A program made the translations under genes and the position numbers. The notes beneath the pieces were generated by a model that saw only the letters and a program-made list of their open reading frames with translations, was not told the DNA's origin and searched no databases. A DNA stretch of 43,533 bases from Solicoccozyma terricola (lineage: Eukaryota; Basidiomycota; Tremellomycetes; Filobasidiales; Piskurozymaceae), in contig BCLD01000029.1 in the NCBI GenBank assembly GCA_001600875.1, positions 53,149 to 96,681 on the forward strand. The letters are read 5' to 3'. Positions within the stretch are counted from its first letter, which is position 1; each line of letters starts with the position of its first letter. Shown here in pieces: positions 197-3,053 of this stretch.

Positions 197-3053
197 ATGG
201 CAAAGGAAAACGGCATCACCAATCCGGCGTATAGCGGTCAGGGTAATGACCTCAGGTCAGAGGCAAGGACGTCGCAGTACAATGACTTTTGGCAGAAGAA
301 TAGCGTGAATGATAGTGAGGCGGATAAGCAGAATAGGTTGGATCAGTATAAGGAGGTCGTTAATGGTGAGTCACGAACGTAGCGAGGTGAGCTCCCGTCA
401 GGGAGCTCTTCGCGAGCGAAGCGAGCATTGCTTCTGTCTTCGCGGAGCGAAGACCACGCTCCCGTCAGGGAGCTCTTCTTCTGTCTTCGCGAAGCGAAGA
501 CTATTGTCTTCTGCGAACGTAGTGAGCATTCCTCTCTTCGCGAGCGAAGCGAGCACTCATCTCTTCGCGGAGCGAAGACCAAGCTCCCGTCAGGGAGCTT
601 TTCTTCTGTCTTCGCGAAGCGAAGACTATTGTCTTCCGCGAGCGAAGCGAGCATTATGTCTTCCGCGAACGTAGTGAGCATTCGTCTCTTCGCGAGCGAA
701 GCGAGCAATATGTCTTTCACGAGCGCAGCGAGCAATATTCTCCGCGAGCATAGCGAGCTATTCTCTCTTTCTGCGAGCATCGCGAGCTATTCTCTTTTGC
801 AAATACATCGAGCACTATTCTCCCTTTCTGCGAGCAAAGCGAGCTATTCTCTTTTGCAAATACAGCGAGCACTATTCTCTCCCTGCGAGCATAACGAGCT
901 ATTCTCCCTTTCTCTTCGCTCTTCTCTCTTCTCTCTTCAGCCTTCAGCAGGGAAAGAAACCAAAGAGGTCGGTCGATGTCATCGAGATCGTAGAAGATGC
1001 ATGACTTCACCTGGAGAGAATGACAGAAAAACCCCGTTGAATCGATAGTGGATAACTGACAATTTTTTCGAAACTCTTTTCTTACGTTTTGTTTTCCCCG
1101 CGCGCGCTGTCCCGGTCTCTGTCTCTGTCTCTGTCTCTGTCTCTGTCTCCTTTTTTTCTTTCTTTCCCTTTACTGCTCTCTCTCCCTTTTGCTCTCTCTC
1201 TCTCTCTCTCGCTGCATGCGCTCTCTCTTTCTACCTTTCTCTCCCTATCGTTCTCTCCCTCTCTCTCCCTTTTCTATCTCTTGCTCTCCCTTGCTCTCCC
1301 TCTCTCTCTCTGTTATTACTCCCTCCCTCTCTGTCCTTGCTCTCTCTCCCTTTTCTCTCTCCTCTTTTCCTTTTCTGCTTTTCCTCTATATGTCTCTCTC
1401 CCTCTTTCTCTCGTCCTTCTCTCTTCTCTCTCTCTTTCTGTCTCTCTCTTCCCTCTTTCCCCCTCTCTCTCTCCTCTGCCACATGCACGCTCTGTCTTTC
1501 TCTCCCCTCCCCTCTCTCTCTATCGTTTTCGCCCTCTCTCCCTTGCTCTCTTTCGCTTTTCTCTCTCTCTCTCTCTTTCTACTCTCGCTCTCTCTCCCTC
1601 TTTCCTTACTCTCTCTCCCTTTTCTCCCTCTCCTTTCTTTCCGTTTCTACTTTCTCCCTCTCCCTCCCTCCCTCCCTCCCTCCCTCCCTCCCTCCCTCCC
1701 TCCCCCCCCTCTCCATCTACGGAACAGGCTACTACGATGGCGCGACTATTCTCTACGAATACGCCTGGGCTCAGTCCTTCCATTTCTCTCGTTTCTACAA
1801 GGGAGAAGGCTTTGCCGCTTCGCTCGCTCGTCACGAACACTACCTCTCGTCGATGATGTCTCTTCGACCAGGTATGAAAGTCCTAGACGTTGGATGTGGT
1901 ATCGGTGGACCCGCACGAGAGATCGCTCGATTCTCCGACGCCCATATCACCGGTTTGAACAACAACGATTATCAGTTGGATCGAGCGAGGAAGTGGACAA
2001 AGAAGGCTGGGTTGACTGACTTGGTAGATTTCAAAAAGGGAGATTTCATGAAATTGAGCGAGCAGTTTGGGGAGGGAACTTTTGATGCGGTTTATGCTAT
2101 CGAAGCAACCGTCCACGCTCCGTCCTTTGAGGGTGTATACGGTGAGATCTTCAAGGTTCTCAAGCCAGGTGGTGTAGTGAGTGTGGGAGCGGAGCGAGCA
2201 CCAAGACGGCGGTTGCGTGTCCATCACTGGATTGAAGGGTGCTAAGCTTACCCCTCCCGCCCGCCACAGTTCGGTGTCTACGAGTGGGTCATGACCGATC
2301 GATGGGACCCTGCCAACCCGGACCATAAACGAATCGCCCACGGTATCGAAGTCGGAGATGGGATTCCAGAGATGAGGAATTACGAGAACGCGAGGAATGC
2401 ATTGATCAAGGTCGGATTCAAGATCGAGCATGAGGAGGATTTGGCTGATCGTGAGTGGTCGGTCGCCCGTCGGTCGCCGTCGTTAAAACGTGTCCATGCG
2501 GGGTGATAGCTGACGAGCGAGTGGGATGAACAGGCCCGGATGATATCCCTTGGTACTACCCATTGGAGGGAGATATCAGCAAGGCTCAAACCGCTTGGGA
2601 TGGTGAGTCGATGGGGTCTGTGCGATACCATAGAATTCCATCTGATAATCCGGACCGCCTCCGCCTCCCCCCCCCCCCCCCACCCCTCCAGTCTTCATGT
2701 GCTGGAGGACCTCCACCATGGGTAAATTCTTCACCCAGAACGGTTTGTGGGCGATGGAGAAATTCCATCTCGTCCCCAAGGGAACATTCGACATTGGAGA
2801 GTCGCTCAAGGTGGCTGGTAACGCGCTGGTTGAAGGTGGTCAAACCAAGTTGTTTACGTGAGTGTGTTCGTTGGAGAATGGGGATGGTATGACTTTGAGG
2901 CTGATGGATGCGAGGTGATACGCTCTTGTGTCATGCAGTCCTATGGCTTTGTGGATCGTCCGCAAGGTGAGCAGACCACGCGTTACGGGGTAGTTGGGTG
3001 GTGGGCTTGAAGCACTGACGACAATATCTTCCACGCTTCAGCCCGAGAACTGA
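197..3053 (+). CDS. ERG6: Sterol 24-C-methyltransferase
   Basis: Transfers a methyl group from S-adenosylmethionine to C-24 of zymosterol-type sterols in ergosterol synthesis, at the ER or lipid droplets. Exons: 197-365, 1728-2176, 2270-2450, 2534-2602, 2692-2857, 2939-2966, 3042-3053 (357 aa; the yeast enzyme is about 380). Visible motifs are NGYYDG at the exon 1/2 junction, the SAM-binding motif LDVGCGIGGPAREIARF near residue 108, GLNNNDYQ, YAIEATVHAP, LKPGG, VYEWVMTD and a C-terminal IVRKPEN. The ATG at 197 follows an acceptor-like CACACAG and begins the conserved N-terminus (QGNDLR, DFWQKN). Intron 1 is 1362 nt; the others are 75-93 nt. The last coding exon is only 12 nt (PEN plus stop). 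Intron 4 contains a C15 run 10 nt before its acceptor. Confidence 0.95.
376..925 (+). repeat. Palindromic hairpin-module array in ERG6 intron 1
   Basis: The 5' half of ERG6 intron 1 is built of recurring short palindromes. Module P1 is an 8-bp stem with loop GTCA, at 389-408 (GAGCTCCC/GGGAGCTC) and 581-600 (AAGCTCCC/GGGAGCTT), plus a 6-bp-stem version at 458-473. Module P2 is GTCTTCGC/GCGAAGAC with a GGA or GAA loop, at 436-454, 483-501 and 608-626. Module P3 is GCGAGCGAAGCG, at 412-423, 540-551, 638-649 and 692-703. A block of about 125 bp is duplicated (458-582 and 583-707). The 3' part (about 782-895) is a 57-bp tandem repeat containing GCGAGCTATTCTCTTTTGC. No coding sense is apparent; open frames here come from the repeat itself. 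Confidence 0.9.
1056..1060 (+). other. Candidate distal branch point of ERG6 intron 1
   Basis: CTGAC fits the fungal CTRAY branch-site consensus, with branch A at 1059. The last AG before the acceptor region is at 1047-1048, and the next AG is the acceptor itself at 1726-1727. This is therefore the last good branch sequence upstream of an AG-free tract. The branch-to-acceptor distance would be 668 nt, against a few tens of nt in the other introns here. Inference only; a non-consensus branch nearer the acceptor is possible. Confidence 0.4.
1078..1719 (+). repeat. Giant polypyrimidine tract in ERG6 intron 1
   Basis: About 640 nt is almost entirely C and T on the coding strand. It includes a (GTCTCT)n run at 1115-1149, long CT-dinucleotide stretches, a (CCCT)n microsatellite at about 1664-1704 and a C-run just before the acceptor at 1727. 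I count about 20 A residues in the tract and none is followed by G. Long open frames on both strands are low-complexity artefacts. Confidence 0.9.

What the first reader, a model, noticed from the sequence alone, without database searches (positions are those of the whole stretch)
366..1727. ERG6 carries a 1362-nt first intron made of perfect hairpin modules
Other introns in the window are mostly 46-136 nt. This one is ten to twenty times longer, and its first 550 nt is an array of three palindromic modules. P1 (stem around a GTCA loop) occurs with outer pairs G-C (389-408) and A-T (581-600), so a change on one arm is matched on the other. That is what selection on structure, or copying of whole palindromes, would leave. 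P2 occurs three times with loops GGA or GAA. The array may be a palindromic mobile or expanding repeat that landed in the intron, or a structured RNA region of the pre-mRNA.
Basis: seen in the sequence. Interest (0 to 1): 0.75.

Follow-up and report, generated by a model that had tools for sequence, protein, structure and literature searches.

The report
Hairpin arrays growing from splice donors
The long ERG6 intron of this basidiomycete yeast carries one member of a genome-wide family of tiny-hairpin repeat arrays that usually start right behind the 5' splice site of an intron, run in the direction of the gene and fade with distance, which suggests that splice donors can act as starting points for repeat growth that lengthens introns.

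Summary
The array is real and the intron (366-1727) is sound: spliced ERG6 aligns without a gap at the junction to Naganishia ERG6. It is not a one-off: listed matches form 119 clusters in the 23.9-Mb genome, 59 with two or more sites. Of 58 usable arrays, 50 have a GTRNGT donor within 80 nt upstream in the same orientation (antisense control 6 of 59; random 18%). Cross-locus similarity begins at the donor and ends soon after the array, unlike introners. Downstream ORFs hit Pfam in sense 6 of 20, antisense 0 of 20. Units degenerate away from the donor (30 arrays against 7). The commonest module, not described in the finding, is GCGARC-GNA-GYGAGC, a mini-hairpin with tandem G.A pairs whose R-Y pair covaries (416 of 439; permutation maximum 316). 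The claimed P1 compensation fails genome-wide. Loops follow GNA and GNNA, the known hyperstable DNA mini-hairpin rules. Best reading: coding-strand mini-hairpin repeats seeded at splice donors and growing there. Seeding, growth and the DNA (rather than RNA) level are inferred; I had no RNA-seq, strain or sister-species data.

The parts
109..195 (+). Predicted 5'-UTR intron of ERG6; it begins with donor-like heptamers GTGAGTA GCGAGTA GCGAGCA GTGAGCA GTGAGCA, perhaps an early stage of the same process
   Evidence: sequence; TRF period 7 at 109-151; no RNA evidence
197..365 (+). ERG6 coding exon 1
366..1727 (+). ERG6 intron with hairpin array and long C/T tract, 1362 nt
   Evidence: ungapped alignment of the spliced protein across the junction
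366..371 (+). 5' splice site GTGAGT; the first unit (3 mismatches) starts at 373
373..900 (+). Array of 15-nt units GCGARC-GNA-GYGAGC and P1/P2 hairpins; units lose their consensus downstream
391..406 (+). P1 copy 1, loop GTCA
458..473 (+). P1 copy 2, loop GTCA
583..598 (+). P1 copy 3, loop GTCA
436..454 (+). P2 copy 1, loop GGA
483..501 (+). P2 copy 2, loop GAA (GCGAAGC core)
562..578 (+). P2 copy 3, loop GGA
608..626 (+). P2 copy 4, loop GAA
437..686 (+). Two copies of a 125-nt higher-order repeat (437-561 and 562-686, 86% identical): local tandem duplication
1056..1060 (+). Candidate branch point CTGAC, near the start of the AG-free stretch
   Evidence: sequence; consensus recalled, not tested
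1049..1725 (+). AG-free, mostly pyrimidine stretch up to the acceptor AG (separate feature)
1728..3057 (+). Remaining ERG6 exons 1728-2176, 2270-2450, 2534-2602, 2692-2857, 2939-2966 and from 3042 to the stop
2177..2269 (+). ERG6 intron 2 (93 nt) with a lone unit-like word GGGAGCGGAGCGAGC 8 nt from its donor start
   Evidence: (2 mismatches at 2185-2199)

Best explanation
The ERG6 array belongs to a dispersed family of donor-anchored intronic arrays in a Tremellomycete yeast (59 multi-site clusters among the listed matches, true number probably above 100). Shown: (1) arrays consist of mini-hairpins with G..A-closed loops, namely the 15-nt unit GCGARC-GNA-GYGAGC, P2 (GNA) and P1 (mostly GTYA). 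(2) Most begin a few nucleotides after a donor-like 5' splice site, in the sense orientation, and end before the 3' part of the intron, which is unrelated between loci. (3) Units are most canonical next to the donor and decay downstream. (4) Similarity inside an array is well above that to a typical other array, so arrays amplify locally as well as sharing a common stock. Inferred: the array is seeded at the donor, whose GTGAGT resembles the unit halves GYGAGC. New units are added at the donor-proximal end, older ones move downstream and mutate, and splicing removes the product, so the intron can lengthen with little cost. Because only the coding strand carries the G..A loops and the tandem G.A pairs, and GNA and GNNA are the known hyperstable DNA loops, the likely driver is mini-hairpin formation by the coding strand as single-stranded DNA (for example the displaced strand during transcription), causing slippage or template switching. 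The R-Y covariation reflects either that hairpin requirement or hairpin-templated correction.
For: Dispersal: 65 matches to 366-950, itself included, with 40 of 212 candidates scored; unit word 149+112 places against 5+7 for the reversed pattern; P2 word 65 places on each strand against 0+0. Anchoring: 50 of 58 arrays with GTRNGT within 80 nt upstream, controls 6 of 59, 3 of 59 and 3327 of 18800; donor plus unit 14 exact places against 0 for the reversed pattern and 2 for a shorter mirrored control. Boundary, 50 arrays: mean number of similar other loci 0 up to 20 nt before the donor, 0.1 and 0.6 in the last two 10-nt exon bins, 3.8 at intron nt 1-10, 12.1 at 11-20, about 38 near nt 100; after the last seed 11.6, 3.3, 1.2, 0.5, 0.2 in successive 25-nt bins. 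Sense: Pfam 6 of 20 against 0 of 20; ERG6 and CCT4 spliced through their arrays align without a gap at the junction, TOM40 with a one-residue gap there. Polarity: of 41 arrays, mismatches rise in 30 and fall in 7; halves 0.54 and 1.07. Hairpin: R-Y concordant 416 of 439 against a within-array permutation maximum of 316; middle loop base free (A198 T188 C60 G52), G and A fixed (415 and 473 of 498). PMC4686876 states that GNA or GNNA loops with at least two G-C pairs make unique, extraordinarily stable DNA mini-hairpins, GCGAAGC Tm 78 C (passages).
Against: Only one pair of the unit covaries; its other Watson-Crick pairs show none among 178 distinct sequences, P1 none and P2 one copy, so the structural evidence rests on two linked states and could in part reflect two founder types. 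19 of 458 units with another base at R or Y were left out of the 439. Polarity could also come from stronger selection or slower decay near the donor. Sense orientation is equally what an RNA function predicts. Standard DNA parameters give the 15-mer almost no stability, while RNA parameters do predict its fold (-2.1 for the G-C type, -0.2 for A-T); neither tests GNA loops properly. A donor-repeat pattern is only mildly enriched, 34 against 18 for the reversed control, so the seeding step is weakly supported. Codon bias of the 90 nt before the donor favoured sense in only 28 of 50 (19 of 50 at 60 nt, 31 of 50 at 120 nt), while 87% of 92 control coding pieces pass. Similarity between loci rises slightly again 400-500 nt after the arrays (0.3-0.8). 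No data show an array actually growing.
Confidence: 0.5

Rival explanations
1. The arrays are functional RNA or DNA elements: intronic splicing enhancers or intron-mediated enhancers of transcription that sit next to the donor in promoter-proximal introns and are kept by selection, most strongly near the donor.
For: Sense orientation, place after the donor, better conservation near the donor; hairpin covariation; neighbouring arrays on opposite strands are divergent, not convergent (8 to 0, counted by eye in the list; 6 clean to 0), which suggests promoter-proximal introns; the few named hosts look like housekeeping genes (inference).
Against: 196 GTGAGT words outside arrays (not verified donors) show 0.005-0.02 unit hexamers per 10 nt, within the range of control words, so the motif is not a general donor-side signal; the CCT4 array appears not to be in the first intron (its upstream exon starts near residue 31 of yeast CCT4); array length varies widely.
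Confidence: 0.25
2. The arrays are remnants of a mobile element that inserts at 5' splice sites (introner-like or a hairpin transposon), later degraded.
For: Same modules at many unlinked loci; introners can recruit or carry splice sites (PMC9860276, passages).
Against: Similarity does not reach the 3' part of the intron; array length differs between loci; within-array similarity is well above that to the median other array. Terminal repeats and target duplications were not formally tested.
Confidence: 0.15
3. Neutral minisatellites: arrays arise anywhere by slippage, and selection leaves those in introns; hairpins are incidental.
For: Tandem periodicity and the 125-nt duplication.
Against: Sense bias, starts close to the donor, fixed G..A loops with a free middle base and R-Y covariation are not expected.
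Confidence: 0.1

Closest known systems
Short palindromic or hairpin repeats of organelle genomes (Volvox carteri palindromic repeats; repetitive hairpin-forming elements of sponge mtDNA; double-hairpin elements of fungal mtDNA)
   Same: Short stems and 3-5 nt loops, spread through introns and spacers, regarded as selfish (PMC2670323 passages; PMC2800124 abstract; double-hairpin elements only from search listing, and recall)
   Different: Here nuclear, behind splice donors, one orientation relative to the gene as far as tested, polar, G..A loops. Volvox repeats occur in both orientations, have TTTA or TAAA-type loops and are suggested to be inert in the nucleus.
Introners and introner-like elements
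   Same: Dispersed similar sequence inside many introns, tied to splice sites
   Different: Similarity covers only the part after the donor; whether the introns are new is unknown
Hyperstable DNA mini-hairpins d(GCGNAGC), d(cGNNAg)
   Same: Loop rules G-N-A and G-N-N-A closed by C-G are those of P2, the unit and P1 (PMC4686876 passages; d(cGNNAg) from a reference title in PMC5090098)
   Different: Those are oligonucleotide studies; here a natural repeat family, with tandem G.A pairs added (PyGAPu rule recalled, not found in the rows listed)
Hairpin-forming repeat expansions in introns or UTRs (trinucleotide and similar expansion loci)
   Same: Hairpin-prone strand and intronic position (general knowledge; search listings)
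   Different: Complex 15-nt unit, many loci, anchored at donors, polar

Membership tests
Introners | Sequence similarity between loci extends over the whole intron or both of its ends | tested here: not met
   Mean similar loci fall to 0.5 at 75-100 nt and 0.2 by 100-125 nt after the array while the introns continue
Introners | Insertion created a new intron (presence/absence in relatives) | not testable with these tools
   No relatives of this genome are held
Introners | Target-site duplications or terminal inverted repeats (many families) | not tested
   no formal test was run
Organellar short palindromic repeats | Short stem-loops with 3-5 nt loops, many dispersed copies | tested here: met
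Organellar short palindromic repeats | Located in organelle DNA | tested here: not met
   Arrays lie beside nuclear-type protein genes; whether the mitochondrial genome also has them is unknown, since a COX1 search found only two short fragments
Organellar short palindromic repeats | Present in both orientations | tested here: not met
   Sense relative to donor in 50 of 58, control 6 of 59; Pfam sense 6 of 20, antisense 0 of 20
DNA mini-hairpins with GNA/GNNA loops | C-G closed G-N-A or G-N-N-A loop on a G-C stem | tested here: met
   Stem-anchored loops: unit G 415/498 and A 473/498; P1 G 55/62 and A 54/62; P2 GGA, GAA or GTA 111 of 162, with CGA 31, which I read as overlaps with units
DNA mini-hairpins with GNA/GNNA loops | Unusual thermal stability as DNA | not testable with these tools
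   The generic DNA parameters used give the 15-mer about zero; melting was not measurable
Structured RNA under selection | Compensatory changes at several pairs | tested here: not met
   One covarying pair in the unit; P1 none, P2 one copy

The most novel reading that the evidence does not exclude
5' splice sites in this genome act as growth points: coding-strand DNA mini-hairpins (GNA loops plus tandem sheared G.A pairs) form on single-stranded DNA behind the donor and add new units there, so that introns lengthen by polar, donor-anchored repeat growth, a route of intron expansion distinct from transposon insertion, introners and ordinary microsatellites.
Probability: 0.3. Interest if true: 0.85.

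Novelty: new variant of a known kind. Interest (0 to 1): 0.7.

Why it matters
How introns get long, and why repeats prefer certain places in genes, are open questions. A family of dozens, probably more than 100, arrays that mostly start at splice donors, read in the sense direction and carry an age-like gradient is a natural experiment: strain resequencing alone would show where growth happens. The unit also gives a concrete structural rule (GNA loop, tandem G.A, R-Y pair) that may explain why the same word recurs in unrelated genomes: the 19-nt GCGAGCGAAGCGAGCATTC was found exactly in 16 stretches of prokaryote contigs.

Tried and rejected
P1 arm compensation as evidence of structure: rejected, pair 8 is A.C in 32 of 49 copies.

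General donor-side motif: not supported, 196 GTGAGT words outside arrays show no excess; these words were not verified as donors.

Codon-bias proof of orientation: the first run used wrong training frames; after correction it stayed uninformative (28 of 50 at 90 nt; controls 87% of 92 pieces, which were the training set itself). Dropped in favour of Pfam.

Pfam sampling: of the 25 arrays in the C1 and C2 stretches, 22 were covered by 20 longest sense ORFs (two ORFs each stood for two arrays); arrays 34, 40 and 41 were not submitted. The 20 antisense ORFs are shorter on average.

Mitochondrial origin: undecided, only two short COX1 fragments found.

Relatives elsewhere: the P2 word gave 2 viral-collection contigs, the unit word plus ATTC 16 prokaryote stretches. 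In those 16 it occurs once or twice per stretch, in some inside a longer local stem by eye; read as convergent.

Donor-heptamer seeding: 34 against 18 in control; kept as inference.

AG-free tract as part of the system: a second array (22) has a 733-nt AG-free stretch, but the median after arrays (114) is close to random (108), so it is treated as separate.

Literature: in the rows shown (lists capped at 8-20) by nine answered paper searches no title or abstract start describes donor-anchored hairpin arrays; the exact-word search gave 0 papers. The library lacks most subscription journals.

An earlier count said 7 of 20 Pfam hits with 6 above cut-off; the figure is 6 of 20 with 5 above cut-off.
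Full report
What is there. The window starts with ERG6 (sterol 24-C-methyltransferase), seven coding exons from 197. The spliced 357-aa protein matches Pfam Sterol_MT_C and methyltransferase families, and its best hit is 75% identical to Naganishia adeliensis, so the organism is most likely a Tremellomycete yeast; it was not named to me. The protein aligns without a gap across the 366-1727 junction, so the 1362-nt intron is sound although no RNA data were available. The other coding introns of the gene are 75-93 nt.

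The array. Between 373 and 900 lie 14 units at up to 4 mismatches, three P1 and four P2 hairpins, and a 125-nt higher-order duplication. Then come about 100 nt of other sequence and a C/T tract; there is no AG from 1049 to 1725.

Not a one-off. Searching the window's own genome (23.9 Mb, 33 contigs) gave 65 matches to 366-950, itself included, the unit word at 261 places against 12 for the reversed pattern, and the P2 word at 65 places on each strand against 0. The listed places of these three searches merge into 119 clusters, 59 with two or more sites. Two lists were cut at 100 rows, so this is incomplete, and some single-site clusters may be chance. I merged 90 loci into 47 stretches (154 kb) and defined 59 arrays with at least two seeds.

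Anchored at donors, in sense. Of 58 usable arrays (one has masked sequence upstream), 50 have GTRNGT within 80 nt before the first seed; in 14 the seed starts 7-9 nt from the donor start. The same test on the other strand at the other end gives 6 of 59, after the array 3 of 59, and random positions 3327 of 18800. With a looser unit (up to 5 mismatches, background not measured at that level), 37 of 50 arrays start 4-15 nt from the donor start and 21 at 7-9 nt. Of the nine others, three have GTRNGT further up (93-219 nt), two GTGAGC and one GTGGGG within 34 nt, two lie on the same strand 0.8-1.4 kb downstream of another array, and one is masked. All-against-all comparison of the 50 shows that similarity between loci is nil in the exon except 0.1 and 0.6 loci in its last 20 nt, rises to 3.8, 12 and about 38 loci over the first 100 intron nt, and is 0.5 or less from 75 nt after the last seed, with a small rise to 0.3-0.8 at 400-500 nt.

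Host genes. For arrays on contigs 1 and 2, the longest ORF downstream of the array hit Pfam in sense for 6 of 20 ORFs, 5 above cut-off (NUBP-type ParA, GH31 N-terminal, 2-hydroxyacid dehydrogenase, SEP, NmrA; Cnd2 below cut-off), and in antisense for 0 of 20 (sampling in Tried and rejected). CCT4 (intron 554 nt) was spliced across its array and aligns ungapped at the junction to solved structures; TOM40 (687 nt) aligns across with a one-residue gap there. A LIPB-like gene has an array intron of 682 nt by my reading (the name is recalled, not searched). Opposite-strand neighbours are divergent: 8 against 0 by eye in the list, and 6 clean against 0 (a seventh, on C15, is confused by an inner hit). 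This suggests promoter-proximal introns, but CCT4 seems to be an exception.

Polarity. Using a symmetric definition (first to last unit with at most 2 mismatches), 41 arrays qualify; in 40 the trend is defined: mismatches rise away from the donor in 30 and fall in 7 (sign test p=1.9e-4), first half 0.54 and second half 1.07 (p=1e-4). A first version with unequal search margins gave the same sign, 39 of 52 rising. Within-array similarity (mean best bit score 98 in the first quarter, 51 windows) is far above that to the median other array (62) but below the best of all others (110), so there is local amplification on top of a shared stock.

The module not described in the finding. The unit GCGA-R-C-GNA-G-Y-GAGC folds as G-C, C-G, G.A, A.G, R-Y, C-G around a GNA loop. 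With R, Y and the loop base left free in detection, 458 units have at most 1 mismatch; 439 have a purine at R and a pyrimidine at Y (19 dropped). R and Y are concordant in 416 of these, while 2000 shuffles within arrays average 285 and never exceed 316. Among 178 distinct unit sequences the pair is Watson-Crick in 124 against a shuffle maximum of 104; slid control pairs and the other pairs show no excess. The middle loop base is free (A198 T188 C60 G52) while the flanking G and A are mostly fixed. Stem-anchored P1 loops are GTCA or GTTA in 46 of 62 and P2 loops GGA or GAA in 100 of 162. These are the GNA and GNNA rules of hyperstable DNA mini-hairpins (passages of PMC4686876; title of Nakano 2002 seen as a reference in PMC5090098). 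GTYA is not a GNRA RNA tetraloop (recalled rule). The tandem G.A pairs lie in the Py-GA-Pu context on both sides in 479 of 523 units, partly by the way units were detected; that this context favours sheared pairs in DNA is recalled, and the rows listed did not confirm it.

Mechanism. Shown: family, anchoring, orientation, boundary, polarity, hairpin rules. Inferred: seeding at the donor, growth next to it, DNA rather than RNA as the driver. The chief rival is a selected splicing or transcription element. Against it, GTGAGT words elsewhere lack the motif. For it, orientation and position. I put the descriptive part at about 0.9 and the growth mechanism at about 0.4 to 0.5.

Known or new. Organellar palindromic repeats and introners are the nearest relatives in kind; each fails at least one tested defining feature. 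In the rows shown by nine answered searches I saw no description of donor-anchored hairpin arrays, within the limits of an open-licence library.

Noticed in passing
window 1049-1725: A long, 89% pyrimidine stretch without a single AG between a CTGAC branch-point candidate and the acceptor: an extreme AG-exclusion zone. Array 22 (C2:1408531) has a 733-nt AG-free stretch after it.
   Followed up: partly
window 109-195 and 2177-2269: Two other ERG6 introns also carry donor-like repeats at their 5' ends (heptamers; a lone unit), while the other GTRAGT words of the window listed show nothing comparable by eye: array hosting may cluster by gene. Four stretches also have two or more arrays on the same strand.
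   Followed up: partly
L004 (about 2000-2082), window 2667-2686, other array hosts: Long poly-C runs (up to about 80 nt) near acceptors of array-bearing genes; runs of at least 12 within 1.5 kb of arrays are C 42 and G 27 in sense, overlapping flanks counted more than once.
   Followed up: partly
L095, L097, L101, L104, L106, L108: The same 19-nt word GCGAGCGAAGCGAGCATTC occurs in Lachnospiraceae and similar gut MAG contigs inside what looks by eye like a longer stem (such as AAAATGA...TCATTTT), perhaps a bacterial hairpin with the same mini-hairpin tip.
   Followed up: no
G000 C5:361370-361732 and C20:186027-186389: Two short COX1-like fragments and no fuller COX1 match in the assembly: perhaps nuclear copies of mitochondrial DNA.
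   Followed up: no
window 17803-19368 and 42030-43366: Two PPP-family phosphatase-like genes on the minus strand (name recalled from the translations, not searched).
   Followed up: no
window 7684-13168, minus strand: A pentafunctional AROM-like gene (name recalled, not searched), with a G run of about 25 nt at 12507-12531, that is a C run in the sense of the gene.
   Followed up: no
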